DNA of 64,000 nt from Apostichopus japonicus (taxonomy: Eukaryota > Echinodermata > Holothuroidea > Aspidochirotida > Stichopodidae). Both the position numbers and the translations under genes were made by a program. The stretch is taken from contig NC_092564.1 in NCBI RefSeq assembly GCF_037975245.1, forward strand, positions 12,238,484 to 12,302,483, in the 5' to 3' direction. Below, in pieces: positions 1-57,680 of the stretch. The notes under the pieces are model-generated. The model was not told the origin of the DNA. It did no database searches and worked only from the letters and a program-made list of their open reading frames with translations. How positions within the stretch are numbered: position 1 is the first letter of the stretch; each line of letters begins with the position of its first letter.

Positions 1-133
1 AACATTCCTAAGACATCAGGTGACCATGTGACGTCAACGTTTGTATACCTCACTCACAACTATACTTTTAGTGTGTAAAGTCGTATACTTGAGCTGCCAA
101 AAACATCAACGATATTACTCCTTTTTCCTCAAA

Positions 134-289
134 ATGTCACAATTCTGTGTTGTTGGAGGTTGCAGTTATACCTCATCCAACAAAGGCATCAGCTTTTTTA
201 GATTTCCGAGTAAAAGAACCGACGTAAAACGCCGCAGACTTTGGATCAATTTTTTGAGATCCACGCGGAAAGATTTTTCAGCACCCGGA
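134..289 (+). CDS. THAP-type zinc-finger exon, incomplete
   Basis: Begins at the ATG at 134 and encodes a THAP-like N-terminus: paired cysteines four residues apart (C5 and C10, MSQFCVVGGC), the FFRFP core, then an LWINF tryptophan segment. THAP domains are DNA-binding C2CH zinc modules found in transcription factors and in P-element-type transposases. The second half of the zinc site (usually Cys-x2-His after the Trp segment, followed by a C-terminal AVPTIF-like box) is absent in this frame. The open frame continues to 379 but reads like intron. A GT at 290-291 right after APG could be the donor, making the exon end in phase 0. Alternatively it is a decayed transposase exon. No partner exon was found downstream. 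Confidence 0.6.
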
Positions 290-2460
290 GTATCTCATGC
301 CCATGAGTCCACATGCATGACCCTGCTTCTGTGTATGCTGCAAATGTCTCATTCTGTGAAAATTATATACTGTCGATAGCTGTGTCGGACCATGGTCGGA
401 CATAGCTAATGTGAAATTGACCGTAAACACGCCCTGGACGTCCTTACATGTAACATTATATCACGCAATTGACAGTAATATATTTACTGTAAGAGATGAC
501 CGTATATATATACCGTGCCAAGGGTATAGCATTGTTAGTACATGTACGGTAGTTAGTTACAACTCTCGCCGTCGTTGGCTCACAGCATTTGTAAATAGCC
601 ATGTTAGGATTTATCTATTTCATTTGTTGTATTCCAGTATCGTGAGTTCGTGATACATGTGTAATATTGTCCGTTCTGTTTATTCCGACATCTGCATGGT
701 CCAAGGAGTTGAATGAAAACGGTAGTATGTAGCGATCGGACGTTTTATTTCGTTAGTGACTGTCTTGTGATTGTGGGATGTTAGTACTGGTCAAGGCCTG
801 TTTCAACTAGACCTAACTCTATGGAATTACACAGACTCACGGTAGTTTTTCGCCCAGATTTGAACAAGAAACGTGGATTAAGATATTCACTGCTAAATTT
901 GTTTATTGACAGGATACTTTTTCTGTGTTTGTATACTTTTGGATATTAAAACGAGTAAGTACTATGTAAGTATATTGTACCGTACAGACCTATTGACGCT
1001 ACGCTATGTAAAAGATGCCTCCATTTGAGTGGAAATTTTGCTAATAAAATAAGCAATTTAACTAAAATTTCTGCTTATAATTGTCTTAAAACTTGTTGTT
1101 AACCTTCATGTGTTCTTGTTTTAAGCTAACAGCTTTTCAAACGCTCGAAATTGGAAGTCAAAAACAGTACAATTGTTCGCTATCTGTGTACAAACAGTGC
1201 CTATATCAGCGTTTGATTTTCGCGGTATACAAACTTTGACGTCACACGGTGACCAGAGGCTCCTTTGGGTCAATCTCTGTTTTCAGACATTCCAGAGGTT
1301 CATGTCACGTGACTACCCAAAATGTCCATTTTCGTGGTCGTTTTTGATGGGTTATAGTAGGATTTCGAAGATTATTTTTTACACATGTTGATTATGGGTA
1401 TGTAAACTCCTAAATTAATGGAATATCTCAAAAAAAAAATTGCCTCCATATTTGGTCTTTAATGAGATAAAGAAGGACCCGAAGACGCATGTTTTATAAG
1501 TAAAGATAAATGTCCATTACGTAAGGAAGTTTGTCAATCGGGAAACAAATCACATCTCAAGAATCTTTGAGAAACAGAAGTGAACGGGGGGGGGGGGGTG
1601 GGGAGAGAAGGGTTTGACGAGTTGAACGGAGGGACGAATGGAGAGAGTTGGTGGTTACTACACTTAGGCACATTTCAGACTTAAGCATTGTACCAAGCTT
1701 AAGACGGTTTTAAACAACGTTAAACAGATAGGAGATTGTCTTGGGATCGGAGACAAGAATATCGTTATGCAGAATATCCCGAGGGAGTTAGGGGGAGGGG
1801 GCGGGGATTGCTAACAATTGTAATGCCATTGACAAACTTATATGGTGTTCCTTTGTGACGTCACTGCTGATATTATACACATGAAGATAAGACCTGACAC
1901 TGTTATATTGTATCTGCATCCATTACTTTTATTTCAAATACAATCTCATTATTTACAGTTATCATTCTGCTTACGGATGAACACACAACATTCAACATTT
2001 TGAATCCTATCGTTAAAATGAAAACAAAGAAAATATGACTTAATTAGAAAGTAACTTATTAACATATATTTGAAGAATCGCTCTTTGCAGAGTTTTTCTC
2101 TTCTTTACTTAATCACCAATTCTGAATAAGAAATGATCACCACCCACCTTACTTCTAAACAATAAGGAGAAGCACTGAGGTGCCATTTGAGGAACCTGTG
2201 CTAAGTACTATTACTAAGTGAAGATACCAGTTCCACAATAGCTTATTTAGCGTAAGGAATCTGTGGTACTGGTGAACATTAGGATGTATCATGCTTCGCA
2301 TTGTGCCCATTTTACAGTTTACGCAAGTCATAGAAATAATAACCGTCGGACACATACTTTTTTACTTTTAACCATTTACCTTTCAAATGTCAAACAAGTA
2401 AATGTGGGATAACAGTTCTCAATATTAAATTCCTGCTGGTATAAAATCTGCCTTTATTAG

Positions 2461-2700
2461 TCCCAGATAACATGTGTAAAAGTAAGTTGGCCTGATGTTT
2501 CGATCCTAGCAGGATCTTCTTCAGATGCTAAATGACAAGTAACAGTAACAGAAGGGACAAAAACATGCACAGAATACAGACAGGTTAATGAGCACAGTGA
2601 ACACAATGAGATACATGTAAGGGGATTAGTAGACAAGGGATGGAGAGAAGAAAACAACAGGGGAAGAGGAGAAGTAGGAGATAAACAGTGGAGGGACAAA
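2461..2700 (-). mobile_element. Retroelement 3' end, copy A, with hammerhead-like fold
   Basis: On the minus strand this shares about 90 bp with 57575-57670 (+), including the GATCCTGCTAGGATC stem-loop followed by GAAAC. The same core recurs at 44586-44628. The minus strand is open from 2699 to 2457 and ends with the EEDPARIETSG peptide that also occurs in copy C, but the translation may have no meaning. I infer it is the terminal part of a Penelope-like or related retroelement, because one copy sits between target-site duplications and all share the hammerhead-like structure. Confidence 0.6.
2490..2528 (-). ncRNA. Hammerhead-ribozyme-like fold, copy A
   Basis: Read on the minus strand: stem I GCAT, intact core CTGAAGA plus one extra A, stem II GATCC / GGATC around loop TGCTA, then GAAA, CA, TC, and stem I partner AGGC. 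It departs from a full hammerhead by an A-G mismatch in stem I, a two-base stem III (CA) that is no longer self-complementary, and an AUC cleavage triplet. Probably inactive now, but the architecture is clear. Confidence 0.45.
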
Positions 2701-4715
2701 GAGAGGATTAAAGGAACAGGGTAGATAACATAACGTTAGAAAATGTAATCAGTAATGTTTCGCTGAAGCCGATTAGTTTGAGGCTGACAGTGAGAGTTGT
2801 AAAAACCTTTAGCCAAACTTGACTACTTTCTTGTGTTTGTGGAGGCAATACTGCAACTATTCATAATAATTTGTAACCATGATCTAAACATCCTACACTA
2901 TGTAGTGGAGTTACCTCAACCACTTCTCCTTAAAAAAAAAAAAAAAAAATTAATGTCTGCCTGCTTCCCTTGAATGGTGGAAACCAATGATGAATGTTAC
3001 ACAAACTGTGAACTCTGTACAGAGGACCATTATAAACCGAATAGCTCAACAGAAGGAAGAAACATCACAAAAACACAACATCTATGAAATACCCTGTAAG
3101 GAATGGATTCCAATTTGAGCCATGTCACCTTGCCTCCTCCTACACCCCACTTTACCCACTCAAACATTACTATTAAGTAACCAATCAATTCTTCTTACTA
3201 TTTATCTATTAAACCAACATTTACCCCCCAATAGCAATCAATCAAGAAGTGTTTCCCCTGGCAACAGAGGCATAGCAGATGAATATATCATCTCCACAGC
3301 GAAAAAATATGCAAAAGCGATGACAATTCCTGAAATAATTTGTGCCAATCTGACGATAATTCAGTTCTACTATGTTTACTTTTTAGTAGCTATCCTCATG
3401 TTCCACTAACCCTCATCTCTTGAGAACCCTGTCATGTGACCAAACCATTTAAAACATTGCAATGTGCAGGCTATGCTGTAATTGAGATTGTAAGGTTTGA
3501 AGTTTCTTATGCTTCAGGCATCCTTGAATAATAATTAAAATGACATCATTTTTCTTTGTGTAAGGAAACTGCTAAGTAACAAGTCTCTTGTAGAGTGATC
3601 TTCCAACTAATTCATTCCAAGTATTAAACAACCTGAGATATGAATGAGCCAATGTTATAAACTCAAGCTTATTCGTGTTCTGGACAGTTTCAACAGAGGC
3701 TCTTTGTGTGATCCTGAGCTACTTCAAACAGGCCCACAGTAACACCACTTTAAAGATTTGTAAACTTGTTTCTGTAGTAAATGGGTAGGTCAAGTAGTCT
3801 GGAGACAAACCTCTTCAAGTTATGAATGTTATGCAATGGCTAGCGAACTCAAGGTCTGTAGGTCAGAAACTAAATTAAACAATTTACTTTAACAAAGTAA
3901 CATACTTGCAGTTGCTGCAAAAAAAAACAGAATCACATTTTATGGAAAATAATAGCTTTCAAAAGAATAAATGATATAAGGCAAGTGTAATTAATAATGT
4001 AAGTAAAACATGTTTCTTTAAGTTTTGGCTGTTAAGCTACCGAGCAGTCAAAGCCTAGATATGTTCATAATCACTTAACATATTCATAATTATTATTCCA
4101 CTTGGTTGACAAGTGGAAAGCGCTTAAAACGTCATCTGTATTGCCCTCCAAATTTTAATCTGCTTAAGCAGAGATTGTGATCAAAGATTTATAAAGGAGG
4201 GGTGTGGCCTTCAATTGTTGAATCTGGCTCCATACACAGGATCTAAGTGCACTCTCCCCCCCTTCCCTCCAACAAAATTAAAAATGCGTTAAAACTAGGT
4301 TTATAATGTGCTTTATAATTAGGTTTATAATTAGGACTACATGCAAGGTTGAACCAATAACTACTTTAATGTAGAGTGATATTGAAAAGGGAATCTGTGC
4401 CTGTTTAAGTCCCTGAAAGTTTCCACATAACTGCTGGTACTAATTATATCGACTCATTAAGGAGGGTGGGAACAGACAGTTTAATATATCAAGTGGAAAA
4501 ACTATGTGGAAGTGGCAAGGGGAGGGGAAGGGAAGGAGGAAGAAGAAGTTGGTTGGAAATGAAAAAACAAATTCAAGATTTTGTGATCACATTTTGGTTT
4601 TTCTAATATAATTGGAAGGCCCATACTCATTCACTTGAACTCAGGTTGGTAATTCACTTCTTTAGATAGTTTTCACGGCGGCAATGATTTCACTTGTGGA
4701 AGAATGAACTTTGAC

Positions 4716-18634: not shown

Positions 18635-19345
18635 TTATGTGTATGTGTTTGCACATGAATATGCAGGTGCTTCCTGGTTAACCTTTTTTGCCTGCAATCC
18701 ATCACTCTTACCATTATGCTCTGTTGTCCTGCCCTCAACAAATGTATATAATGCCAAATTATATGTGTTTAAACCATTACCTGCATCCGTCAATATATCC
18801 CCTTTCATGCCCCATTCATGTGACTTTTGAGGGTTATTTTCATTAAGCCAATAGTTCCCTTTGAAAGCGATAACCAACTCATCGACTGTTAATTTCCTCC
18901 CTGGATAAAATGTTTTTCTCTCTGGATAAAATGTATGGAGGGGGGAGGTTGTAGTGGGTGGCACGGTCTCCCCACCTGCATTAAGTCAGATGATTTTTCA
19001 CAAGTGTTTATTAGCCCAATCTTGCGTTTATGCCTGTTTATATATATATTACCGATTAGTTTCAAGTACACAGAATGTTTTCAGCATTTCATCAGTAAAA
19101 TAATTTGTGCAGAGTCACTGTCATGTTTGAGAGGCCTGCCTGAGATGCTTTGACCATGTTCAGTCACATGCAACATTTTCCCCAAATAGCTCCCCTAAAT
19201 TCTACCTCCACAATCCACATCGCCATGCAATCGAGCTAACTCATCATGCAGTTGTGCTAGCCAAACATTGTCGTTATCCGTTTTCTCATTTTCACTGTCC
19301 ATTTCATTAGAATAATCACTCAAGTTATCTTACGAAATGACTCGT
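18635..19345 (-). pseudogene. piggyBac transposase remnant
   Basis: The minus-strand frame from 18964 reads FYPGRKLTVDELVIAFKG, then QKSHEWGMKGDILTDAG and LALYTF. This matches the piggyBac/PGBD order: PG..L.VDE..I.FKG (first catalytic Asp), P.K.HKWG.K and the D..TGY..N...YTG block. Further upstream on the same strand are NYFTDEMLKTFCVLETNR (about 19045-19110) and an acidic segment with DYSNEMDSENEK (about 19290-19330), which fit the N-terminal part. These pieces are in different frames with intervening stops, so it is a decayed fragment. A small duplication (FYPERK/FYPGRK) lies at its centre. I saw no TTAA-bounded ends. Confidence 0.75.
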
Positions 19346-25055: not shown

Positions 25056-28000
25056 GTAAGTCATGATTGGTTTTATCATCGTCTTTTAATCTCTGTTTTC
25101 CGTATGCTTCAAGTTTAAAAGGAAAAATGTTTCTAGTGCTAAAGAGAAAGCAGTTCACATTTCAGATGAGAGAGATGGTTAGGTTGTTCTGCCACTGTAT
25201 GCAAGAATGTCTGTTTTTATGTCCAAAAACTTAATAATTGAAGTTCTTTGAATGATCAGTGGTTTCCTCTGTTGTTGCTATTGCTTCAATAAATACGAAA
25301 GTTAACAGTCTTGATGATGAAATATTTCGTTATAATTTCCTCATAGATGTTAACTTCATATGTTAATGTGCTATAGCAACCATTAGTTATAACATATATG
25401 TTTGATGTAAAATTTTCTGCATCCAAAGTGGTGCTGTTAGCTGTGTGTAATCCTAACCAGTTTAAAGCCAAAATAAAATAAAACTGTTAGCAAACTGCTT
25501 ATCCACTAGAGAGCCTGTGTAGAGCCTGTGTAGGAGAATATATCAGTTTAAACCCAGTTATGCTATTCCTCTATATGAAAGTAGTTTATTGCACATCTAC
25601 AGTAGGCTAGTAAAACACTTGGTCTTGTCTTTTTTATTCGTAAAAGTTGCACATCAGATGATCATGGAAATTCTCTTTGTGTCAGCATAATATCAGTGAT
25701 GTTGATTTACCCGACAATCCTTGTTTACTTATTATTCTAATAAATTATAAATTAAATGCTTGGGTAGAACAACATGAGCAGAATACCAAATACATAATGA
25801 AGACTTCATATAATGGCATCACAAGCTTTTAAAATTTTTGTAACTTTCCTTAAATCAACTTTCTATATTTCCAACAGAATTTTGATGTCGAGAACAGTTA
25901 ATCAGATGAATGGTCTAGCATATCAGCTCATTTCAAGACCTTTGTTGATGGTTGTGAGAGTCATGTATCGTGCCCAAAGGAATTCCAAGTGGTATCTTCA
26001 AGTGGGTGAGTTTAGCACAATATTTACAGATGTTGACTTAGTGAATAGTCATGCTGTGAAACTTCGTCTAAAATCCAACCAACTACACCTAATCTGAACA
26101 GTTACACCCAAACAGAACAGTTACACCTCATCAGAACAGTTACACCCCTTCCTAACAGTTGCACCCCATAAGAACAGTGACACCCCTTCAGAAAAGTTAC
26201 ATCCCATCAGAACAGTTACGCCCCATCAGAATAGTTATACCCCATCAGAACAGTTACACCCCTTCAGAACAATTACACCCCATCAGAACAGTTACACCCC
26301 ATCAGAACAGTGACACCCCTTCAGAACAGTTACGCCCCATCAGAAAAGTTATACCCCATCAGAACAGTTACGCTCCATCAAAACAGTTACGCCCCATCAG
26401 AACAGTTACTCCCATTCAGAACAGTTACGCCCCATCAGAACAGTTACACCTCGTCGGAACAATTGCACCTGATCAGAATGATTACACCTCATCTGAACAA
26501 TTCACACCCCGTCAGCACAATTACAACCCATTACGTCAGTTACACCCCATCTGAGGAATGACATCCCTTCAGACCACCCAGTGAATAAGTTATCTGGTAT
26601 CACAATACAAACTACCATGCAAGTTGGGCAAATTCTTATACAAGTGCAAACATGTGTAACAGTTTTTGTACACAGGAGCCATAGTAGATCAATTTCCTAG
26701 CCTTTCAAAACTTCAGAATGCAAAACCTGAACACTAAATGATTCTCTGGAAGGAAATTACATTTCTTCAGGACAATTACACCCCATCTGAACAAATCAGT
26801 ACTCATCTGATCATGACAGTTTTTAATAGCAAAATAAGAAAGGTGCATCAAACCTTTTATAATTTGTGTTCTCAATTGGAGAATATTCTGCTACTTACAC
26901 ATTTGTTTTCATGTGAAATGTCTTGTCACGTAATTGAAGGAAATCTCTAGTGATTTTTTGTCTCTCTCTCTCTCTCATCAAGCTACATCCTGCTAGTATC
27001 CTTTTTTGCAAAGTCATCTATTTATCAAATCATTTTTGAAATATTGTGAATTCATCTGGCAAAAGTACAGAGAGGATCATGACACTTCTAAACTAGACCT
27101 GGAGATCCTGTATAAAGTGTACATGACGTCTGACAGGTTCCGGCTTGGCAAATGCTTTCCTTCCCTTCACGATTGTTGGAAACCGGCCTAAAATTTAACA
27201 ATTTTTAACCACTTGCTGAAAAATGCCGGTACATGAAAAAAAGCTTTTAGCTAAACTCAAATTCACACTCGCAGTTGAACATTAATTTGCACTGGCAGAA
27301 AAAAATGCCAATGCATTCTTTGACTACTGGCAAATGGTAAAAATCCACTGGCTTTTAAATAACGTGAATTTTGAGGCTGTGTATTTGTTTTTTGTTTTTT
27401 TTGTTCCCATGTGGTTTGAAAGGATGCATACACAATAAGAGTGTTCTTTACTTTTTGGCCTCCTTTTGACAGTAAACTACATTTAAAAGTGGTGAGAGTG
27501 TAACAGTGAATGTACTGTATGGATTGATGCAGGATTCATGCAGCAGGGATGTTAAGACTTTACCATATATACCTCCTGCATATAATATAGTCTTCATCAC
27601 CACCAGGTATTTATCAAACTGCAACACATTTGCCATCTTACATGCTCCCATTTCATTCCATTTTTCTAGGTCATGGATGCTTCTTGTCAGTGGTGCGATC
27701 TCTCACTAACATCCCCTACCATGAAAGTAATATCTCTTAAAACAAAGACGGTAAGCTTGATGATCAGTCTGCAGTTTCTCATTTATACCAGCATTGTTCA
27801 CCTCTTCATGTCATTAGTAAGGGGATGGTGATGCCAATCTTTCTTACAGAATTCAATGAGGGTTTACAAATTTGCATTTTTCTTTCCCTTTCATTTTTTT
27901 TTGCTTGTTTGTTGTTTTTCCATTTGCTTTTTGTGCTGTTCTCACACAAACACAAGACAGAGTACTACAAGCCTTTTATCTTGGACCATTCTAGACCTTC

Positions 28001-31000
28001 TAATTTTATCATTAATCATCATGTAAATGATTTCTACAATTTTTACTACCGAGGAAGTAATAAACGTTTTTTATTTCAACCTTTTTGTCTTGTTTTTGTT
28101 TTATGTTTCTTTAATTATCTTCTTTGTTTAGTATTTGCTTATACATGATTAAACATGTCATTAATATTTATTGTATACAGGAGCCAAACCAGAAAAGCTA
28201 TGTTTATTTTTGGTTCTCTCTACCATACAGATACTGTATTGCTTTATTTCAATTTCTTTATGATGTTACTTTCACACTATATGTTATTGTATTGTATGTA
28301 TATTGTGTTTTTGAATTGTTAGAAATAAATGAAATCAAATAATTACCCGTTTATCAAGAATCTTCATTAAGTGAACAATTTTCGAGTTCATAAGTGTTGA
28401 AGAATGAACGTATCAGTTTTATTGTCGCAATTTAATTGAAACGCCATTCTATTACTGGCCTTTTACCTCTGCAGCATATCTTACGGTTCTGATTAACACC
28501 AAACATCCATCCATTCAGTCACAGTTGGAGGATGGGCTAAAGAGAGGTTTGAGGTCCATCACTAATGGTAGACAGTTTGCTGTAGAGGTGAGAATATGGG
28601 CTGGCATATCATGCTTCAAAGCACTCATATTGACAGTATGAACAGTTCCTAACCTTTATATGATAGAAACATGATACTCATACTGTCACTATGAGTGCTT
28701 TTGCAGAGTTCCGAGAAAGATCGGTTTTTAAAACAGTGTCCCAACTTGGTGGTTTTACTTTGAAACAAATCACTATCTTTAACTTATTTTGGTGTTTTAT
28801 AAGACAATGTTGATAGAATGTCTTTTGCACGCATGTTGAGGAAAGCATAACAAAAGGCCTTAAATGGATTTTCTGGTGGATGAAGTTACTTGCTTTGCAA
28901 ACTAGCTAAAAGTTTCTTTGTATCTGTAGGTCAATAATCACACCCTCATAGTATTTTGCATAGCAAGAATATTTATTTTCTAATTTTGATGGTATTTCAT
29001 CATTGTATCTGGCAACAGCAGAATGAATGATGTCACCAGGGCATTTCAGCTGAAAATGTCTTTGTGTTTTTGTTATAATATTTCAGTCATTTATTCACAT
29101 AGGAAAATGAAACATTTTTTCCAAAAGTTGCATTTTGTCGAAATTCTCACATACAGAGAATGTTGAGAGAAAGTAATCATTCCAAATGGTATCAATTTTC
29201 AAAGATAAATCAACAAGAACATTATAAATCAACTAGAACATTATAACAGGTAAGTAAAGCTTTTGAAGAACAACTGCTGTGATGACGTCACAGGTTAAGC
29301 CAGTCAAAATACGTTACATTCAATCAACCATATTTTCATGTTGGGAACAAGATTTTGAGATGGGTAACTGTAGTCTGGGATATTTTGCTTTTCAATGCAT
29401 GCTTGACATTGACTGTCAATGGGAGATCCCTTTTGAATCCTTAAAACAAAGATGGTCTAACCTTTTGTTTTGTTTTTACTTGTATTCCTCTGTTTCCATA
29501 GTTGAACTTTAACGCCATGATTGCTTCTTGGTTGAAGACAGTCCTTTGCAGGGAGCATGTACTATGGACCACATCTCACAGTTGTGAGTTCTTCTTACGA
29601 TGTGAAGGAGCTAGTTTGGTCATCACAAACTGCAGCGAATACAACAGTTTGTTTGATGTCAGGGCACCCGACTGTTGCTGCATATGGATGTTTTGCCTGC
29701 CCTGCTGCTTGATAACGTGTCCAGCATATACTGTAAGTTCTATTCAAACTTCAGAATTCTTTTAAAGAATTCTGTTTTCAAAGAATTCATTTGGCATGTT
29801 GACGGGCCTGTAATTAAGAACTGTGGTCAGCCTGGGTTTACATTAAATGATACTTTTTGCATGTTGTTTTTTTTAACTTAGTTATTAATTTTTAGAGAGG
29901 AGGGGGGGGGGGAGGGGGAGTTAAGATGAAATTTCCAGTCAGATAATGATGTGTTTTGCTTCATTTTATTGTTTTGACGTCGCAGGTACCATTTGTGTTA
30001 ATAAAATAACAATGAATGACGTGTACTCACATGGATCCAAATTGTTGAAAAATCAAGTCTAGAGAAAGTTCATGCTGTGACATCACAAATTAACGTTTGG
30101 TGCAAAGCCTTGTTTACTTCCAAGAACGAAACAAGTAGTCTCAAAAGCGTCATATTGTACCACATGTAATGATTACACTGTGTTTTTGTGATAAGGTAAC
30201 TTTGGAGATAACTAGGAACTGGACCTTAATTATCATTAGCCAATCAGATCCCTTCTTGTTCATGGAGTAAATCAGTGAGTTATCATCTTGGGTTTGTCTC
30301 TCAGTATTGTGTGTTTGTTTGGAATAATTTGTATCTTGTACGTCACATCCAGTAACCCAATGAACAATTGTCATTTGGAATATGTAAGGTCAATTCAAAC
30401 GGTGAAAACTGAAAATTGCTTCCTGATGAATATAACATACAGTATTTCCACCATGCTCTGGTTGAACCCAGTGATTTCCAGTTATAGATGTTATTGCATT
30501 AAAATGTCACCAACGTGATTCTTTCAACCTTCATAACAACAAAATATGAGATTTTGCCAGGACTATATCACCGCCATCTTGGTTTATTAGTATATAGAGT
30601 TATCCTGCACGCCTATCAATGCCCTTAACAACAAAATAAAGACATTGCCAGGACTATATTACCGCCATCTTGGTTTATTAGTATATAGAGTTATCCTGCA
30701 CGCCTATCAATGCCCTTAATATTAAAATAAAGTCTTTGCCAGGACTATATCACCGCCATCTTGGTATATTAGTATATAGAGTTATTCTTCACGCCTATCA
30801 ATATCCTTAACAACAAAATAAAGACTTTGACAGGACTATAGCACCACCATCTTGGTTTATTAGTTTATAGAGTAATCCTTCACGCTTATCAATGCCTGTT
30901 TGTGATCTTCTCTATATTTTCATTTCCAGGTGACCAGACGGATCACAGTTGATGACCACACAGTCAATATCAAAGCCGAGTCGAGCTATTGGGATCTTCA

Positions 31001-34061: not shown

Positions 34062-36480
34062 AAATGATAAATCTACCGATCACATGATGGCAAAGATAAC
34101 GAAGAACGGGAACATAACCCCTGTATTCTAAAGGTGGATGTAAAGGTGAGGTTACACAATGAATCATTGATCACAAACAAAGTGATTTGCCCCTTATAAT
34201 CCGTAGGGTCCTATTCCCGATTTCAACTCTTGTAGTCTAACCAAATCATAACCTGCCTTTATATCAACTTTAAAATGCCAAAGTATTACCAAGTTTTGGC
34301 AATTACTGAAGCATCGAAAATCTGTTGAATTTTAATTCTTCTTTATCCACAAGCAATTGTGCCTCAGCGGTTTGTTTTCTTTTGTTCTACTTAAGTTCAT
34401 ATTTGTAATGTCACTACTTCTTTTGTAAAATATTTTGGTATTTTCCTTTCTTTCTTATTAAACCTCTTTGAAGGTTGGCAAGTGAGGTGAATTGAAATTG
34501 GGTACATATATGCAAGGATAAAATTTACCCTCTGCAACCTTGGTGGCTCAATATATATTATATTTGTTCCCATGTGCCTCCCTCACCACCCCCCCCCCAC
34601 CCCCTTTTACCTCGATAACTTGTCCTAAATTCTAGACGAAATCTGTGTCTTTATAGTACATATATATTGAGTTGTATCCAGCATATATCCCTTCTTGAAT
34701 AAGGTTTATTTGATTGATAAGCAAGTATTGATATTACACCCATTGGGAACAACTTGAAGAAGAAGAATAACGAAAGAAAATACTAACTAAAAACCTATAC
34801 CTTGAGATATACAGGCATTATCAGTATGTTCTGCAGGTTTAAAATATCAATAGAATCTACTCATAATATTCCACATCATGTAAGGCTAGGCTGAGGATAT
34901 CAGAGAAGGTTGGAATCAAAAGAACCTGCTCATGCTTTTTGTTTTTTTCCAATTCTATATACAAAGAAGTCATTTTTTGATAGAGCAAAAGAACATTTTC
35001 ACTAAAATGAGACATTGCACCAGTGATGTCATTATTACTAGCGCTGTGCTAGCCAAAAAGCAGGGAATAGTTTCTGTGATAGTGAGCAAATTGCTATGTC
35101 CCCATAAGGCATAATTTTCTTACAGTTCTTGTATGTAATTGTTTATGGGACAATGTTGAGGGCCTTCAAAACTTCTATTGCAAAAACAAAACTGAAAACT
35201 GAGGTCTTTGCCCTTTCTGAATTCTGATTGTTACTTTTCAGTCAAGTATTTCATTTTGATTTAAAAAAATTGTTTTCTAAGGAATATTTTTGTATTTCAT
35301 AGGTTTGGCCTTCCGTTTTGGTTAGAGAAAAGTCATTTCTTGGTCTCCCCAAGTTGCCCCCAAAAAATGTGACTTATAATGTTTGCATCAAACATATTAT
35401 TTGTAGTTTCAATGGGCTAATTACCTAATAATACAAGGATCGTTTTTAAAACAGCTTCAATTATGGACTATTTAGTATTGAAATAAGAGTGAGGCTTTCA
35501 TTTTAATACATTTCTTAATTTTTTTATCATATTTTAAGTCATGGTTAAACATACTTGATTGGGTATCACAAGAACTACTTTATGAAAAAATCAGTTGAAT
35601 TGTTTATCATATGCAATAAGGGCAGACACAATGACACTCACTGTAGTACTGTAGTGTAATAGAGTTTGAACTGGGAAAGTATGTCATAGTTTTGAATTTC
35701 ACATATGCTATTTTTTTTTTACATAATTATCCCCTCCAGGAGCTTTTCCAGGATTTTAAGTTTTCATGTCAAGTTAAAGAGTTTATTAGCTAAAAGCTTC
35801 TCTAACAAGTAAAATCATATTCCTGTATTAAACTTGACTTGCTAGTTGTTTTTCTCTTTATTTTTATATTTATGATTTTTTTTATGCTTTGACTGTTTAA
35901 AAGAGACAAAAGTTGAATTTTATGAATTGATGTTTCGTATAATATTCAGTTTGGTGAATAATTCTTTGAGTAGAATCAGACTCAATTACTCCACTTTTTC
36001 ATTTTGTTTTTCAAGACGTTCACAGAAATAAACTTGACGTCTAAGATGATTCTTGCCATTAGCTTCAGGTATTCAAATCAAATTTACAACAGGAACCTTA
36101 TACAGTGGCCTTAAGATCATGACTTGTCCTACGTGGTCTTTTCATATGCTAAATAAAATTCCCAGAACTAACTGGCAAATAGTTTTTTTTTCCTTTTTTT
36201 TCAAGTTGCCATGAAAGGAAAGAATAAAGATAAACCATTTTGCAGGCTTCCTTCTTGTGATGTGAAGTCTTAAAATTTGCTTGAAACAATATATGGGTAT
36301 TAGTTGCATCACAAATAAAGGATTCAAACACAACGGTTCTGACAATCTGTGTTCTCTAAGGAGTCTAACAACTAGGTTAGGGTTATGGATACCATTTTTT
36401 GTTTTTTGAGTCCTTCCTTACCGAAGGAAGAAAAAAGAATATCCAATGGTGATGATGTGTGAGTGACATGTGTGTGTGTG
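34062..36480. other. 3' UTR and downstream DNA
   Basis: Begins with the 3' UTR of the uncharacterised gene. I cannot place the poly(A) site; AATAAA occurs only far downstream (near 36027). No coding feature recognised. Confidence 0.45.
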
Positions 36481-36559
36481 TGTATGGGACATCAGCTTGT
36501 AAACAAACATAACTTAATGGTTGAACAGCTGATTGGTTGTAGAACCTCATTGGTGAGTT

Positions 36560-37000
36560 TAAAGAATACTACAGAAACTGGTAGAGGTCAAAGGTCATGT
36601 GAGGTCATCATAGGTTAAAATCTTCCCAAGAAATTGAACACAATAGTAACTGTAAGCCAAGCTTAGATGGACTTAATAGTTGATATGTTAATCAAACTTA
36701 GTGCATACAAGTACTCTTTTGTTTTGTTTGAAGGGCAAAGGTCACATGAGGACCAACAACTGAAAACCTAAACATAATATAATTTCAAAAGCTCAGCGTC
36801 GTCTTTCAATTTTGTACATGGTTTGAAGATCCACTCGAGTGGGTTCAATAACCTTATTGGCTTTTGTGTAGGTCATAGGTCACTTCAGGTCAATTAGAGG
36901 CCATAATCACTAAAACACAAACTTAAAGCTAGGATCTGCATGCTTGATAACTAGTTGACATGAGTACAAATATCTTTCTGGTAATAATAATCAAACCTTG
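36560..37000 (+). repeat. ~140-bp decayed repeat carrying AGGTCA half-site arrays
   Basis: Three periodic blocks each contain three nuclear-receptor-type half-sites in the spacing DR1 then DR4. Block 1 is exact: AGGTCA at 36585, 36592 and 36602. Block 2 is degraded: 36732, 36739 and 36749. Block 3 is exact: 36870, 36877 and 36887. Unit spacing is 147 and 138 bp. The rest of the unit is more diverged. Confidence 0.6.
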
Positions 37001-39013
37001 AAACTCTTATGTGTAGTCTACTGAAAGTGTTCATATAGATTATGGGAAAGAAACACTAAGCCTATTTGATTTTTTTTTTTGGTTCTCATTTGTTATTATT
37101 CTATTGATTGTCACAAGCTGATACTGATAATACCAGTTGATTTGTCTAGGCTAGAGTGTTATTGTCATAGTAAAGCCAAAGGCAGCCAATAATGAGAGCT
37201 AATGATTTAAGTGTTTTAGTCTGGAGACGAGGCATGACTGCGAGTGATAAAGAGACTCTTAGGTGAAATGACAGGAATCGATTCAGATATCACTCAAAAG
37301 CTGCATATTATTGAAAAATGAAGGTGATCAGGATTAGGGGAACCATTTCTCCTAGGTGACAGTATTATGAATATCTAGTAAGAATTGAGTGTTACTTTTG
37401 AGTTAACAAAGGGTATTTCTACAGATTTAAGATCTACGGTCATTTATGAATTCGCCTGATGTTTTTAATGATTTTGAGGGTTAAAATGATATTCTGAATT
37501 CATTAAGAATGCTAATTAGCTAAATATTAGGTTTTAATGACTTTGTCATTACCAGACAAATGTGGAGAAGAAAGAGAGAGAGAGAAAAGGAATTAGCCAA
37601 ATTGATGTCGTAATGACATAGTCATCATAGACGTTTTCAGAAGATCACATCTTGTGAAGTATAATAATATTGGCATAAAGTATATTAGTACATTACATAA
37701 ACAATCAGTTTTTGGCGAATCATTTTCAGACTAGAGTTTTATATGCCTTGATTGCGGTAGTTTGCCCACCCCATGCGGCGGGAGATAATATTCTATGGAA
37801 CATTTTAATGACCATTTGCCTATCAGACTTTTGTCAGTTATTTCAAAGTCTGTTTCTCGTTTAGCGCGGGAGTCAAGTGCACTATTTGAACTTTCAAAGT
37901 GCACTAAAGAGACAAAGATACTGTATATGTAGACAATTATTGGAGTATCGAGCAAGTAGTTGAATTGTAACCACGATCTCATTTGTATTGTGAATATAAC
38001 TATCAGTGACATGCTCGGGATTTGAAAGATAGAGAGGGGAGGGGTGGGGGATTCTAGATTCTCTGAAAGACGTAGTAATGGAACAGGAATCTTTATGGAA
38101 GGGTCAGAGGCATTGAAGGGTTTATATAAGGAGAGGTTTGGGCCTGGGGCTGTTGAAGGTGACTCCCATGTAGGTTGATCTGGGGGTCCTCCCTCTGACA
38201 AAAAGAGTAAACAATAAATGGTACATTATGTGCCATATTTAAACTATACCTTAGCTCTATTATAATGTCTAAACGCTACGGTGTGCTGCTTAATAAAAAT
38301 TCAGTGCTCTGGAATATTTTTTGTTGGGATGAAAAGGGTGTGCAGACCCGTAGAAGTGTTATAATTAAAGTTTCCAAAAATCCCCCAACTGACAATGGAG
38401 GTAGGTAAGCAACCACCCCCCCCCCACCCCTGCCACCTTTCCCTTTAATCTCGCCACTATATACTTATTAGCCTAACGTAGTTAACGTATCTGACACTTT
38501 AAAAGTACGACTTTTCATATATTTTCGTTATCAGTCTCAGGTATTCTTATATAGTGTTGCAAAATTCTGAGATCATTTTACTTTTTTTTTTTCTTTTTTT
38601 TTTCAGTTTAAAGACTTGCTTGTCTGCATATGAGAAAAGTTAAATAACTGGTTTACAAAAACAAATAAGCGCGTTACAGTCAAGATGGAAGCTGTCAACA
38701 CTATTTTTAGGGGGCACACTTTTTTTTCCACTTTTCCCAACGGTTGATGGGGGATGGTTGGGGGGGGGGAGTAATTACCTAGATCAAGAGATGGGGTAAT
38801 TATTGCTTCTGTGAAGTGATTCTAATTGACTAACAGCTTTAGTGTGGCGACTATCTTGTATTTCATTAAGTTAATCGCTTCGTGTGTCTGTTTTATTTTA
38901 TATTATTATCCAAGGATTTTGCTATGTATAGTAATGATCTGAAATGCTCAAATATAAAAGTTACATCGTTCAAACAAATCAGTGTATTTTCTAAATTTCT
39001 TTTATGACGAGGT
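37000..39013. other. Intergenic DNA with one longer minus-strand ORF
   Basis: The frame 38201-37731 (-) is open for 156 codons (MSEGGPPDQPTWESP... start). I recognise no domain and no partner exon; the Pro-rich start may belong to an old repeat. Otherwise AT-rich, with poly-T (38581-38605) and G tracts (38760). Confidence 0.45.
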
Positions 39014-39287
39014 TTGAAAGACGTACTCGTCTTCGTTGTGCAGTGTCTCACGTTCTTAAAGAAAAAGAAGAGGGAGCCATTGACACCCACGGATAAGCAA
39101 ACCTTTTTGCATTTTAAAGTCGACCCTCGTCCACACCTCTCTACCTCCCCCACAAGGTATACACGACCCCCTCTGGCAAAGAAACGTGTAACAAATCTAA
39201 GTGTTTGGTCTGTAAGCATGTCATCCACCATTACCCACAATGCCACGGGCACGATTTTGAAACCAGGAAAGTTCAACTGCGATTCAT

Positions 39288-39452
39288 AACGTAGTTAATT
39301 TACTTTACTGCACCCTTTGTCCCCTTGCCACATATATTAGGGAAACCGGCACAAATTTCAGACTTCGATTTAACAACCACAAACACAGCATACGTAATAA
39401 CAGCCCCGGCAACCCCAAAGCTGGACACTTTAATCTACCGAGCCATGGTTAA
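39288..39452 (+). pseudogene. GIY-YIG endonuclease domain, broken
   Basis: The 54-codon stretch carries the GIY-YIG-like core of a Penelope retroelement, ending at TAA 39450-39452. It is out of frame with the preceding 39014-39289 frame. Gly-to-Arg in YIRET would remove a core residue. Confidence 0.75.
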
Positions 39453-40084
39453 GTCCATCTTAAATGCAGCATTTTATATGGTAACTTTTGAACATCGCTA
39501 AATAGAAACAACCATAAGCATAGGAGCCCAATTTGATTTGGGGTGCTGTAACGACTTTGCCGAAGAATATAACCAACATTTTTCGCGCGCTAAGCGCTCG
39601 TTCAACATGTTAATGTACATATCATATAGGCATGCATCGGTTATTACATCGCATTATCCGTGGGATGCTACTGTCAACACCGAACTATCTTATGTAGACG
39701 GAGAAAAAGCATGGAGGTCCAATTATGTCAAAACTCTCTTTTACATTAGTAATGGCGATTTAGTCGGACAAACTTAGAACTTTATTTTAATCACCAAGGA
39801 GATTTTTTTAAACTATTGATTTCCTTAAGCTACATCATTGCAATTTATTTTCTTTCAGTAGTTGCTCGAAAACCTCTCGGCATATTGCCCGAATTTTCAC
39901 AAAACTATTTGGTTGGGGGCGCAGAACCCCCCCCCCCCCCGGCCTCCTACGCCTGGAAACAACCAAGAAACGAGATCGATACTACAGCTTAGAGACTGGT
40001 CTAAACATGGACCTGTCTATTATGAGCACCCATGCGAGAATCCCAGCCGATTTATAGGGTCAAAGTTTTTCTTTCACTCCATTA

Positions 40085-40125
40085 ATACAACTGAACAAGG
40101 GCGGTTTGCCCGAAATATTTTGTAT
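40085..40125 (+). ncRNA. Hammerhead ribozyme-like structure
   Basis: Stem I ATACAA (40085-40090) pairs perfectly with TTGTAT (40120-40125). Core CTGAACAA (40091-40098) corresponds to CUGANGA with one change plus an extra A. Stem II GGGC (40099-40102) pairs with GCCC (40108-40111) around loop GGTTT. Then GAAA (40112-40115), palindromic TA, and TT, giving the NUH triplet AUU with cleavage predicted after 40119, exactly where stem I begins. Hammerheads with very short stem III are known from Penelope-like elements, and this one lies downstream of a Penelope GIY-YIG remnant on the same strand. Confidence 0.6.
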
Positions 40126-40140
40126 CTTTTACTGTAAACA

Positions 40141-42370
40141 TTACAGTTGGCATGAATTTATCCGAATTTATCCGTTTTGTCTATATTTTTCTGTTTACAG
40201 AGAAAGATAGAATCTCATATGCAAATTTGTATGTTATTGGAATTGTTGTACATCTGTCCAAGTATCGGCTTTGTAAAGACTTAAATGAAAATGGTGTGTT
40301 TTGAAATAGCAGCCCTACAAAAACATGCTAATTAGTAATGACATTGCATTATTCTGACGACTGTAGATGTCGCTTCAGATCCACCGTATATTTCTTTGGC
40401 GGGCCCCATTTGTTGCGCTTCCTACGTAAGAAATCAACAACCGTCGTATGATTTTTTTCTCCGCCAGGAAATGTCACTTAGGAACTCAGCAACCGTCACA
40501 AAAAGATGGCGTCTTACGTTGTTCAAAAATCAAATCAGAAACTAACAATTAACAACAATGAAAACAATTCTATTTCCTTTCTCAAAGTACGTCAAATGAA
40601 AGAGGAAGAAATAACGTAACACACTGAGTTTTAACTAATTCGTTTTATAGGAAGGAAAAACTCCATCATTTAGTTTATTTGGGTAGTAGGCGTACTTTGT
40701 ACCCAGGAGGTTAACTAAGAATAAATTTATCGAACCACTGCTTCCGGCTTGATTTGTTTGTCAAATCAGACAATTAAAAGCATACCAATTATAGTGTACT
40801 GTACTGAATTAAAATTGATTAACTTTCATAGATTCTGTTAATTAATGACGTATTAATTATATGCTATGACAAACATGATGTCATCCTAACTAGAAATGAA
40901 ACATTCTGCATCCCGTGTCATGGAACTTACGCTGAGAGAGGCGTGGTCGGTGAGTTTTACTATAGGTTTCAATGGTTGATCGTCAATAACAAGTTGGTCG
41001 TGTTGTTCGCACAATTATGCGAGGCTATACGTTATATTGTAGGAGTTTGGTAGGTCTATGAAGCTAGAGATAGAGAGAGAGGGCAAGGACACATGGTATG
41101 CTATGGTTTGTTATAAGACAAATACATCTTACTCAGATTTTAATCACGAAAAAATCATGAAAACGATGACACCCAGTTGTGACAACTTTGTTTATAAACT
41201 GTACACTTTCTTTTCATGCTTCGAAGCAGTTATAATGGCATGATATATAAATTATTTTCAACTATTTATCTGCTTACACCGTTAATAATTGGTCATATTC
41301 ATGCATGAATGAATTTGATTTTGTAAACACATTTGTCAACCGTTTCGATGGTAAGTTACGTCATATTTAAGTTACGTCATATTATATATATATAAGTGAC
41401 GTCATATTTATATATATCAGAGACGTCATATTTATTTGCAGACTGTTGGTTGATATCTTTTTTTAAATAAAATATAGTACATACTTTTAGTCGATAATAT
41501 AACACAAAACCTAAGGACGTATATACTTCATAATAACATGACAATATCGCTAGTGTTTTAGTGTCTGCACTAGTAAACATTATTACGTCATTAATACGTC
41601 AAAACAAATATAATTCGATCGCTAGATAAGTTTTCATCTGTCAAAAAAAACAAAAACGTAAAAACTTTACAGAAAATGATTTACAAGAATAAGATCGAGG
41701 AACCGTTCCTGTTTATATAATGAGTCCAGCTTTAAGCTGAAAATGTTTTCATACAGTCTGTTGTCCATAGTCTGTCCTCGTATTTATGTAAATTTACCGG
41801 AATTTATTCAAATTAAAACAATTGGAATTTTACAAGGTTTAGGAGAGCATGTTACTGTACGCAAGTAACCTCGGGAAAGTAATACGAAGAGAGAGGTCCT
41901 ATACTCCGTCTGTCGTATAGTCTTCAACAATAGTAGTCCAATTCGTATAAATATATATAGGCCTAACATAGATTTGTCCGCTATCTTCAATTCGTTTCAG
42001 TCTTTGTCAATGTCGTCTTCCAACATGGTGCAATTAAGTGTTAGAAAACAATGTCTCGTTATAAAACGTCCTTGTTACTTGTCTTAAATTAGTAACGATC
42101 AAGTCCTTTAGCGATCATCACGTCATTGTCAATGAGCTTACCATGGCATACTACGTGTGCAGTATATGCATATGAAGGGTCAGGGGTTAGGGGTTAACAT
42201 TACTCTTATAAAATAAAGAAGCTCTTCTGTTGTATCACTTGAAGTACATGTATGACTCGTTTGTGATAATATTCTGCTGTAACTTCGTACGTACATACTG
42301 AAAAGCTAGTTTGTAATTGTAGCTCAACAACAATGACGTGGCGACTACGGAAATGCCTTATGTATAAAAA
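40141..42370. other. Intergenic DNA
   Basis: No exon recognised. The only structure noted is four spaced ACGTCATATT copies (41358, 41374, 41399, 41423), one of them inside a TGACGTCA. Confidence 0.55.
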
Positions 42371-43394
42371 ATGTTAAAACCAATATAAGCATGTCCACAA
42401 TAAATATAAGCATGTCCAAATTCGTATAAACATGTCAAAATTAACATAGGTATATCCGAAAAATAATATGAGCATGTCCAAAATAATATAAGAGTGTCGA
42501 AAGATTATATGAGCGTGTCCAAAATATAAAAAAAGAGTGTCGAAATCTAATACAAGAGGGTCGAATGTAACTGCCTATTCTATTTTGTATAGTGAACATT
42601 TTGGCGTTTAAGTTACACTATATATTGCAAAATATCCAAATAATATAAGCATGTCCAAATTAACATGAGCATGTCCAAATTTTTATAAACATGTGAAGCT
42701 AATACGAACACGTCCAAACATATATAAGTATGTCCCAAAATAATACGAATATGTTCAAAATAATATAAGAGTGTCGAAAAATAATAGAAAAGTCTCGAGT
42801 GTAACTGCGCACTTCAACTTTGTGCAGTGAACATTGAGGTTTTTGAGGTCACGCTATGTGGTCCAAATATCGAACTTTTTATATTGGTATGTCGAAACAA
42901 ATTCAGCTTATCAATACCTTCTTTGGAGTTACTCTGTATCAACTGACACTATGGTTATCATTGTGACATTATAATATTGCACCATTATTCTGTTTTTGTG
43001 AAGCAAATAATTCAGAATATGTAAATACAATACCATCACCTAATATATTTATTTCTTACATCCGTTCTTAATGTGAGTGGTTTCGCTCTGCCTATATATT
43101 GATGCGTAGGCAAAGAAGTTTACGTACGAAAGTACAACATGCACATTCGCTAACAACTTTCTAACTAGTACATAGTTATCACACATGCGTACGCTGACAG
43201 TGAAAATCAACTACCATTTTTTTAACGGAGAATTGTGACACTTAATTACGGTTACCAGGCTTGTTAAAGTAACATATTAGCCTTCTAGTTTTGTCTTTAT
43301 AATTTATGTCCCTTAATATTCGAAGTATACTAAGGTAGATTAAATAATAAGATGGAGTATTTGGGGGAAATATTTGCCGCTCTACCCAATTTAG

Positions 43395-43930: not shown

Positions 43931-44585
43931 GATTGCACCTTGGGGCCGGGCGACCACTCGCGCTACGAAACAACTCAACTAATATTACCTCGAAAATAAA
44001 ATCATTTCTCCACCAAAATATCATTAAAATATAAACACATACATTAAGACGGTAATGGATGAATTGTTCATCACCTTACGTTTTGCTTGATATGCTGAAT
44101 TTGTTTTCGGCACACCAAAATAAACTTTTGATATTTGGAACAAGGCGCGTAACTTTAAACGCCTTAATGTTCATTACAAAGTTGAAGTTAGCAGTTACGC
44201 TCGAGACTTTTGTATTAGTTTTCGACACTCTTATTATTTTGGACATTCTCGTATAATTTTTCGACACTATTATATTAATTTGACATGCTTAAACTATTTA
44301 TGGACATACTTATGTTAGTTTCGACATGTTTACAAAAATTGGACATGCTCCTTTTATTTTAAACATGCTTATATTATTTTGGACATTTGGCAACAAATGG
44401 CGTGAATTCAAACGCCAAACTGTTACTACAAACATGAAGTCAGCAGTTACATTCGACATGTTCATATAATTTTTCCATACTCTCATGATATTTTGGACAT
44501 GCTCATATCACTTTTGGACATTAGTTTCGACATGTTTATATAAATTTGGACCCACCTATATTAGTTTGGACATGATTATATTGTG

Positions 44586-44628
44586 TAAAAGTAAGTAGGC
44601 CTAACGTTTCGATCCTAGCAGGATCTTC
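44586..44628 (-). mobile_element. 43-bp micro-insertion of the hammerhead-bearing element, copy B
   Basis: On the minus strand it starts GAAGATCCTGCTAGGATC and ends CTTACTTTTA, matching copies A and C. The 11 bases on either side are identical: ATTATATTGTG at 44575-44585 and 44629-44639. It is therefore a severely 5'-truncated retroelement insertion with a target-site duplication, placed inside the right arm of the foldback. Confidence 0.8.
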
Positions 44629-44660
44629 ATTATATTGTGTTGGACTTTTTTGATATAGGC

Positions 44661-47224: not shown

Positions 47225-47454
<230 letters not shown>

Positions 47455-49183: not shown

Positions 49184-49540
49184 CTTATAACATGATCAAA
49201 CATTCACATAACATGATCAAACATTCACATAACATGATCAAACATTCACATTACATGATCAAACATTCACATAACATGATTAAACATTCACATAACATGA
49301 TCAAACATTCACATTACATGATCAAACATTCACATAACATGATCAAACATTCACATAACATGATCAAACATTCACATAACATGATCAAACATTCACGTTA
49401 CATGATCAAACATTCACATAACATGATTAAACATTCACATAACATGATCAAACATTCACATTACATGATCAAACATTCACATAACATGATCAAACATTCA
49501 CATAACATGATCAAATATTCACATAACATGATCAAACAAG
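49184..49540 (+). repeat. 21-bp minisatellite with 147-bp higher-order period
   Basis: Seventeen units of AACATGATCAAACATTCAC plus AT (21 bp). An AACATG/TACATG variant follows the order NNNYNNY NNNYNNY NNN, and a GATT variant occurs in units 5 and 12, both giving a higher-order unit of seven (147 bp). The 156-codon open frame over it (49117-49587) translates to NMIKHSH repeats and is a consequence of the unit length. Confidence 0.95.
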
Positions 49541-55689
<6,149 letters not shown>

Positions 55690-57215
55690 CTTTCATTGTG
55701 TGTTTATCAAATTGCCTCTCGTTATTGTTTGTCACAGTGTCTCTCATTATTATTTGTCACATTGTCTCTCTCATTATTGATTGTCACATTGTCTCTCATT
55801 ATTGCTAGTCGCATTGTCTCTCACTATTGATTGTCACAGTGTCTCTCATTATTTGCGTGTCACGGTGTCTATCTCTCAATATTGATTGTCTTTCATTGCG
55901 TGCTTGTCACAGTGTCTCTCATTATTGCTTGTCACAGTGTCTCTCATTATTATTTGTCACACATGTCTCTCATTATTGCTTGTCACATTGTCTCTCATTG
56001 TGTGCTTGTCACATTGTCTCTCAGTATTGCTTGTCACATTGTCTCTCATTATTAGCTTGTCACATTGTCTCTCATTATTATTTGTCACAGTGTCTCTCAT
56101 TATTGATTGTCACATTGTCTTTCATTACTGCTTGTCGCATTGTCTCTCACTATTGATTGTCACAGTGTCTCTCAGTATTTGCGTGTCACGGTGTCTATCT
56201 CTCAATATTGATTGTCTTTCATTGCGTGCTTGTCACAGTGTCTCTCATTATTGCTTGTCACAGTGTCTCTCATTATTATTTGTCACACATGTCTCTCATT
56301 ATTGCTTGTCACATTGTCTCTCATTGTGTGCTTGTCACATTGTCTCTCAGTATTGCTTGTCACATTGTCTCTCATTATTAGCTTGTCACATTGTCTCTCA
56401 TTATTATTTGTCACAGTGTCTCTCGTTATTGATTGTCACATTGTCTTTCATTACTGCTTGTCGCATTGTCTCTCACTTTTGATTGTCACAGTGTCTCTCA
56501 GTATTTGCGTGTCACGGTGTCTATCTCTCATTATTGATTGTCTTTCATTGCGTGCTTGTCATATTGTCTCTCTGCAGTATTGATTGTCACATTGTCTCTT
56601 AATGTCGCTTGTCACAATGTCTCTCATTATTGCTTGTCACATTGTCTTTCATTGTGTGCTTGTCACAGTGTCTCTCATTATTGCTTGTCACAGTGTCTCT
56701 CATTATTATTTGTCACACATGTCTCTCATTATTAGCTTGTCACATTGTCTCTCATTATTATTTGTCACAGTGTCTCTCAGTATTGATTGTCACATTGTCT
56801 TTCATTACTGCTTGTCGCATTGTCTCTCACTATTGATTGTCACAGTGTCTCTCAGTATTTGCGTGTCACGGTGTCTATCTCTCATTATTAATTGTCTTTC
56901 ATTGCGTGCTTGTAACATTATCTCTCTGCAGTATTGATTTGTCACATTGTCTCTCAATGTCGCTTGTCACAGTGTCCATCAGTATTGCTTGTCACATTGC
57001 CTCTCATTATTGTTTGTCACAGTGTCTCTCATTATTGATTGTCGCATTGTCAGTATTGCTTGTCACATTGCCTCTCATTATTGCTTGTCACAGTGTCTCT
57101 CATTATTATTTGTCACACATGTCTCTCATTATTAGCTTGTCACATTGTCTCTCATTATTTGCTTGTCACATTGTCTCTAATTATTGCTTGTCACATTGTT
57201 TCTCATTGATATCTC
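55690..57215 (+). repeat. 25-bp minisatellite with 326-bp higher-order period
   Basis: About 60 units of TGTCACATTGTCTCTCATTATTGCT, with variants (CAGTG, TTGCGTG, ATTAGC). Blocks at 55831 and 56157, 326 bp apart, are nearly identical along their length, and a third, altered block starts near 56837. Many overlapping open frames (CLSL... peptides) are shadows of the array. Confidence 0.95.
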
Positions 57216-57569: not shown

Positions 57570-57680
57570 AGGGTCATCTGTGCGTGTTTTTGTCCCTTCT
57601 GTTACTGTACTTGTCATTTAGCCTTTGAAGAAGATCCTGCTAGGATCGAAACGTCAGGCCCTCTTACTTTTACACACACA
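57570..57680 (+). mobile_element. Retroelement 3' end, copy C, with hammerhead-like fold
   Basis: Matches the minus strand of 2461-2570 over about 90 bp (TTTTTGTCCCTTCTGTTACTG onward) and ends CTTACTTTTACACAC. Inferred to be the terminal part of a Penelope-like or related retroelement. Confidence 0.6.
57621..57659 (+). ncRNA. Hammerhead-ribozyme-like fold, copy C
   Basis: Stem I GCCT (57621-57624) pairs with AGGC (57656-57659). Core TTGAAGAA (57625-57632; the first C of CUGANGA is U). Stem II GATCC (57633-57637) with GGATC (57643-57647). GAAA at 57648, palindromic CG, and TC (GUC triplet ending 57655). One core substitution suggests it is inactive. Confidence 0.5.

What the first reader, a model, noticed from the sequence alone, without database searches (positions are those of the whole stretch)
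40085..40125. Hammerhead ribozyme-like fold downstream of a Penelope GIY-YIG remnant
Seen: a perfect 6-bp stem I, a CTGAACAA core, a 4-bp stem II, the invariant GAAA, then TA-TT, with the predicted cleavage point falling exactly at the start of stem I. Known: hammerheads with minimal stem III occur in Penelope-like retroelements. The two-base stem III position (TA) is self-complementary, so stem III could form between two molecules or two tandem copies. The one core departure (C for G at the fourth-last core position) and the extra A may make it weak or dead.
Basis: partly seen in the sequence, partly recalled or inferred. Interest (0 to 1): 0.8.

Follow-up and report, generated by a model that had tools for sequence, protein, structure and literature searches.

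The report
Decayed Penelope-type hammerhead ribozyme copy
A short stretch of animal DNA is most likely a worn-out copy of the small self-cutting RNA carried by Penelope-like jumping elements, with one key catalytic letter changed so that it probably no longer cuts; three related copies sit in the same window.

Summary
The fold is really there: 40085-40125 (+) has stem I ATACAA/TTGTAT, CTGAACAA, stem II GGGC/GCCC, GAAA, TA, TT. Loose hammerhead searches find such folds by chance, but an 8/8-junction grammar, written after both hits were known, gives two hits here, against 0 of 1000 simulated windows with two and one hit in 0.99 Mb of other DNA. The second hit (57621-57659) belongs to a dispersed repeat with three copies in the window that share a PLE-type minimal hammerhead, CTGAAGA-A, stem II, GAAA, CG, TC; two have insertion-like flanking repeats. 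The 'extra A' is therefore a family feature. The G-to-C change equals G8C, which abolished cleavage in a tested Penelope-like ribozyme (PMC11167929), so this copy is most likely dead. Rfam reports no hammerhead for the target, nor for a sibling with a canonical core, so its silence is uninformative. The upstream GIY-YIG label rests on recalled motifs; no profile confirmed it. The host genome could not be searched. Known kind; low-to-moderate interest.

The parts
40085..40125 (+). Hammerhead-like motif: stem I 40085-40090/40120-40125, core 40091-40098 (position 8 is C at 40096), stem II 40099-40102/40108-40111, GAAA 40112-40115, TA 40116-40117, TT 40118-40119, predicted cut 40119^40120
39184..39557 (+). 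Decayed coding remnant read as a Penelope-type GIY-YIG endonuclease (frameshift near 39288, four stops in the second piece); identity by recalled motifs only
   Evidence: no GIY-YIG match
57577..57676 (+). Sibling repeat copy c57625; hammerhead-like motif at 57621-57659 (stem I GCCT/AGGC, core TTGAAGA-A, stem II GATCC/GGATC, GAAA, CG, TC); core position 3 is T
2474..2722 (-). Sibling copy c2500m, proposed insert of 249 nt (2473-2573 matches c57625); hammerhead-like motif at 2490-2528 with core CTGAAGA-A, one stem I mismatch and CA for CG in the stem-III stub
2465..2473 (-). 3' copy of a 9-bp direct repeat ATGTTATCT (target site duplication candidate)
2723..2731 (-). 5' copy of the same 9-bp direct repeat
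44582..44628 (-). Sibling copy c44600m, 5'-truncated inside the hammerhead core; insert of 42-46 nt
44629..44640 (-). 5' copy of 12-bp direct repeat ACACAATATAAT abutting c44600m
44575..44586 (-). 3' copy of the same 12-bp direct repeat (overlaps the element's terminal ACAC)

Best explanation
The motif is a decayed copy of the minimal type I hammerhead ribozyme that Penelope-like retroelements (PLEs) carry near their terminal repeats. In an intact element the RNA folds into stems I and II around the CUGA(N)GA/GAAA core; stem III is only a short self-complementary stub, thought to be completed between two copies, and the strand is cut just before the 3' half of stem I. In this copy the invariant G8 is C while C3 is still C, so it is most likely inactive. 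Shown: fold, geometry, sibling copies, insertion-like flanks of two siblings. Inferred: descent from a PLE, action in dimers, loss of activity here.
For: Same 8-nt/8-nt junction fold as sibling 57621-57659. Of 4006 placements in the window with 10 or more of 16 sibling junction letters, only 40091 and 57625 have both stems of 4 or more Watson-Crick pairs. Three sibling copies in the window, one with canonical core; two with flanking direct repeats of 9 and 12 bp. A covariance model built from the siblings only gives the target 16.4 bits, E 0.017 over the window. Six pairs change on both sides, 1 of 500 shuffles reaches that. Literature (passages): minimal hammerheads lacking helix III are described for PLEs and as dispersed motifs in animal genomes (PMC7761336, PMC7229834, PMC6155905); G8C abolishes and C3G/G8C partly restores cleavage in a PLE hammerhead (PMC11167929).
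Against: No Rfam hammerhead match. With the sibling model a match at 29259 without GAAA or stem II scores slightly higher than the target (17.6 against 16.4 bits), and loci chosen for the core words alone reach 20 bits (50 of 132 loci), so that score is weak. Fold energies are only modestly better than shuffles (target 10 of 200 as good, sibling 57616-57664 24 of 200; sibling 2486-2532 14 of 200 and its lowest-energy fold does not keep stem I). Outside the motif the target shows no alignable similarity to c57625 (184 of 500 shuffles as good). No exact flanking repeat of 8 bp or more between 38700-39300 and 40118-40185. The PLE protein upstream was not confirmed by any profile. The 8/8 grammar was written after seeing the hits.
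Confidence: 0.72

Rival explanations
1. Chance fold: an AT-rich animal window happens to hold CTGA, a GC hairpin, GAAA and a 6-bp closing stem.
For: Very loose grammar gives 0.72 hits per simulated window; fold z only -1.99; G8 is not G; no flank homology to the sibling tested; the strict grammar was fitted after the fact.
Against: 0 of 300 simulations at core within 2 mismatches, 21 of 1000 with one hit by the 8/8 grammar, one hit in 990,684 bases of other DNA; 12 of 16 sibling junction letters together with both stems.
Confidence: 0.13
2. Hammerhead relic of a non-autonomous element (retrozyme-like or a short repeat moved by a PLE), not of the element whose coding remnant lies upstream; the neighbourhood is coincidental. 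This overlaps in part with the best explanation.
For: The three siblings are short (about 42-46, about 100 and 249 nt) and no coding part was recognised in them; about 530 bp of unassigned DNA lie between the coding remnant and the motif.
Against: The form almost without helix III is described for PLEs (PMC7761336, PMC7229834; passages), while most invertebrate retrozyme hammerheads form a stable helix III, though amphibian ones do not; same strand and plausible order (coding end, then hammerhead).
Confidence: 0.2
3. A working hammerhead variant that tolerates C at position 8, for example helped by protein as reported for the anole PLE.
For: Both stems and GAAA are intact, and an anole PLE hammerhead cleaved only when its protein was added (PMC11167929, passages).
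Against: In that same element G8C alone removed cleavage; here position 3 is C, so the rescuing pair is absent; the coding remnant upstream is broken.
Confidence: 0.03

Closest known systems
Minimal type I hammerhead ribozymes of Penelope-like elements (Cervera and De la Pena 2014; Lunse, Weinberg and Breaker 2017: both seen only as reference entries and through passages of reviews)
   Same: CUGA(N)GA/GAAA layout, stems I and II, self-complementary stem-III stub, dispersed in an animal genome, on the same strand as a PLE-like coding remnant
   Different: G8 is C; no tandem partner copy found in the window; host element decayed
Poseidon PLE hammerhead of Anolis carolinensis (PAc; PMC11167929, passages)
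   Same: stems I and II; order hammerhead, then start of reverse transcription
   Different: position 8 here carries the substitution shown there to be inactive; sibling copies end 16-20 nt past the predicted cut, whereas PAc starts reverse transcription 111-118 bp into the ORF with its cut 26 bp into the ORF
Retrozymes with type I hammerheads (PMC7229834, PMC7761336; passages)
   Same: type I permutation, short non-coding repeats
   Different: canonical retrozyme hammerheads have contacts between loops 1 and 2 and, in most invertebrates, a stable helix III (weak in amphibians); no 150-400 bp tandem array around these motifs was seen

Membership tests
Hammerhead ribozyme (catalytically competent) | CUGANGA core with G at position 8 | tested here: not met
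   C at 40096; the letters between CTGA and stem II are A, C, A, A, so no register gives G
Hammerhead ribozyme (catalytically competent) | GAAA, U16.1 and H17 before the cut | tested here: met
   GAAA 40112-40115, T 40118, T 40119
Hammerhead ribozyme (catalytically competent) | self-cleavage of the transcript | not testable with these tools
   needs an in vitro test
PLE-type minimal hammerhead (by descent) | stems I and II with stem III reduced to a self-complementary stub | tested here: met
   A-TA-T here; A-CG-T in two siblings, A-CA-T in the third
PLE-type minimal hammerhead (by descent) | copies elsewhere with compensatory stem changes | tested here: inconclusive
   6 pairs changed on both sides, 1 of 500 shuffles as high; further pair types 32 of 500; only four rows, all six changes from the target row, no flank homology
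PLE-type minimal hammerhead (by descent) | match to Rfam hammerhead models | tested here: not met
   no hit at the target or at the two siblings scanned locally, nor in whole-window scans; the canonical-core sibling also misses, so little power for stem-III-less forms
Penelope-like element | GIY-YIG endonuclease domain at the C end of the ORF | tested here: inconclusive
   39184-39557 reads like it by recall; Pfam, NCBIfam, PHROGs and PDB sequences gave no such match; single-sequence fold poor
Penelope-like element | reverse transcriptase domain | not tested
   the + strand upstream of 39118 was not scanned by profiles; the ORF listing of 36000-42000 showed nothing that I recognised
Penelope-like element | pseudo-LTR in tandem or inverted copies around the ORF | tested here: not met
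   no second copy of the stretch around the target in 38000-42000 or elsewhere in the window

The most novel reading that the evidence does not exclude
In this animal, the sibling elements were copied from RNA that had not been cut at the hammerhead: all three copies run across the predicted cleavage point and share the end TTTTACAC 16-20 nt beyond it, and none starts at the cut. Reverse transcription would then start next to the ribozyme on uncleaved RNA, and the ribozyme would serve another step. The dead target copy fits an element for which cleavage was not needed for insertion.
Probability: 0.35. Interest if true: 0.45.

Novelty: new member of a known kind. Interest (0 to 1): 0.27.

Why it matters
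[quoted passage not shown] The window offers several short copies with a shared 3' end that span the predicted cut, a natural record of which RNA was copied. It also shows that an Rfam search can miss a minimal hammerhead-like copy with a canonical core, so model searches alone may undercount this class.

Tried and rejected
Rfam at gathering and at E up to 10, whole window and locally: only unrelated sub-threshold matches. Matches at 19717 and 19724 from the loose grammars: GU-rich stems in G-rich DNA, dropped. Match at 29259 with the sibling model: no stem II in place and no GAAA, dropped as chance though it outscores the target. Other patterns gave 0. Relatives of the 63-aa coding piece: none in viral contigs or plasmids. 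Weak profile matches to unrelated families, all below their cut-offs, were set aside (among them a Tudor-like match, E 0.0003, 20.9 bits against a cut-off of 31.4, in another frame of the same DNA); PDB matches to a TNF receptor at E 0.11 or worse were set aside. AlphaFold of the 63-aa piece: one helix, mean pLDDT 68.9, pTM 0.39, not used. Target site duplication for the target: none found. The 2014 and 2017 papers on PLE hammerheads are not held. Chance level of flanking repeats is not negligible: a 9-mer recurs 30-350 nt upstream at 731 of 20000 random positions, a 12-mer 30-100 nt upstream at 290 of 20000; neither control asks for abutment at both ends. A taxonomy look-up was a guess at the host and led nowhere.

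Full report
What is there. The RNA fold is stem I (6 bp), an 8-nt strand CTGAACAA, stem II (4 bp, 5-nt loop), an 8-nt strand GAAATATT, and back into stem I; minimum-energy and centroid structures agree. In hammerhead numbering (recalled) the 5' strand is C3-U4-G5-A6-A7-C8-A9 plus one A, and the 3' strand G12-A13-A14-A15.1-U15.2 / A16.2-U16.1-U17. The cut would fall at 40119^40120.

Is it more than chance. The fold alone is not: with any core letters after CTGA and GU pairs allowed, 60 simulated windows average 0.72 hits, with 2 seen in the window. With Watson-Crick stems, GAAA, U-H and a core within two letters of CTGATGA there is one hit here and none in 300 order-3 Markov windows; with three mismatches 2 of 300 windows have a hit. 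A looser version of that scan gave four hits, two of them G-rich artefacts near 19720, the target, and 57625. I then wrote an 8/8-junction grammar with only .TGA and GAAA fixed: it has two hits, 40091 and 57625; of 1000 simulated windows 21 have one and none has two; the window read backwards has none. Because it was written after seeing both hits, these odds are optimistic. In 132 other loci, 990,684 bases, the same grammar has one hit.

The siblings. The second hit, 57621-57659 (+), reads GCCT TTGAAGAA GATCC TGCTA GGATC GAAACGTC AGGC and folds with the same 8/8 junctions, though 24 of 200 shuffles fold as well. A blastn of its surroundings against the window found two more copies on the minus strand: 2473-2573 (93% over 101 nt) and 44582-44628 (94% over 47 nt). 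Copy 2490-2528 has the canonical core CTGAAGA with the same extra A, but one mismatch in stem I and CA in place of CG in the stem-III stub; its own lowest-energy fold keeps stem II but not stem I as drawn. Copy 57621 has T for C3. Copy 44582-44628 begins inside the core. So none of the four motifs in the window is a perfect hammerhead, each for a different reason, and all three siblings have the extra A.

The siblings look like insertions. Copy c44600m lies between two copies of ACACAATATAAT that abut it; c2500m is flanked by ATGTTATCT at 2723-2731 and directly after its end at 2465-2473, giving a 249-nt insert. For c57625 no clear duplication was found (imperfect A-rich repeats only); its ends are those of the match to c2500m. 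Short direct repeats are not rare in this window (controls), so the 9-bp case alone is moderate evidence; the 12-bp case abuts both ends. A 9-bp duplication is on record for a rotifer Penelope (PMC3846280, passages). All three copies share the end CTTACTTTTACAC, by hand count 20 nt past the predicted cut (16 if the terminal ACAC of c44600m is counted to its flanking repeat).

Target and siblings compared. A covariance model of the three siblings, made without the target, finds the target at 16.4 bits, E 0.017 over the window, second among non-training matches after 29259, 17.6 bits, which has neither GAAA nor stem II in place. The model leans on sequence: loci chosen only for the core words reach 20 bits (50 of 132 loci). 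A test with less of that weakness: of 4006 placements with at least 10 of 16 sibling junction letters, only 57625 and 40091 have both stems of four or more pairs; counting each stem up to four, the next best reach six of eight. In the four-row alignment 94.9% of cells pair and six pairs change on both sides, all six through the target row; 1 of 500 shuffles does as well (further pair types: 32 of 500), slid controls have at most one. With four rows, and one row carrying all changes, this is support, not proof. The flanks of target and c57625 do not align, so the target would belong to another, older subfamily.

Activity. No reading puts a G at position 8. In the anole Poseidon element G8C or C3G alone removed cleavage and the double change partly restored it (PMC11167929, passages). 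Here C3 is unchanged. I expect no activity. The same paper found that ribozyme mutants did not affect insertion in vitro and took unprocessed RNA as the dominant substrate; the siblings, which cross the predicted cut, fit that, from three copies only.

Neighbourhood. 39184-39291 and 39288-39557 (+), in two frames with stops, read like the end of a Penelope-type endonuclease (Cys-rich part, YIRETG, RLRFNNH, HFNLP; recalled motifs). Pfam, NCBIfam, PHROGs and PDB sequence searches gave no GIY-YIG match, and a single-sequence fold was uninformative. I hold the label likely from recall, not shown. No second copy of the stretch around the target was found in the window, so no partner for a dimer in cis is seen here.

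Literature. Passages of reviews and papers say that PLEs carry minimal type I hammerheads lacking helix III, that such motifs are dispersed in animal genomes, may act as dimers, and have an unknown role (PMC7761336, PMC7229834, PMC6155905). The two primary papers are not held. The kind is therefore known; the target is best read as a decayed member by descent, and fails the test for a competent ribozyme. The own genome could not be searched (14 busy answers), so the decisive copy alignment is missing.

Noticed in passing
window 57577-57676 (+), 2473-2573 (-), 44582-44628 (-): Three copies of a dispersed repeat with a PLE-type hammerhead-like motif, common 3' end CTTACTTTTACAC and, for two, flanking direct repeats.
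   Followed up: yes
window 44300-44570 and 42380-42800: Degenerate units like aatataagcatgtccaaa recur (seen by eye); c44600m sits at the edge of one such stretch.
   Followed up: no
window 32-379 (+): ORF with a THAP domain (Pfam PF05485, E 1.3e-06, above its cut-off), which suggests animal DNA.
   Followed up: partly
window 18635-18985 (-): ORF with a sub-threshold match to a DDE transposase family (PF13843, E 0.0035, below its cut-off), possibly a transposon relic.
   Followed up: no
window 47225-47454; 49187-49538; 55688-57207; 26084-26551; 30534-30896: Tandem arrays: (ATG)n of about 77 units, 21-bp units, 25/51/326-bp overlapping periods, 19-bp and 91-bp units.
   Followed up: no
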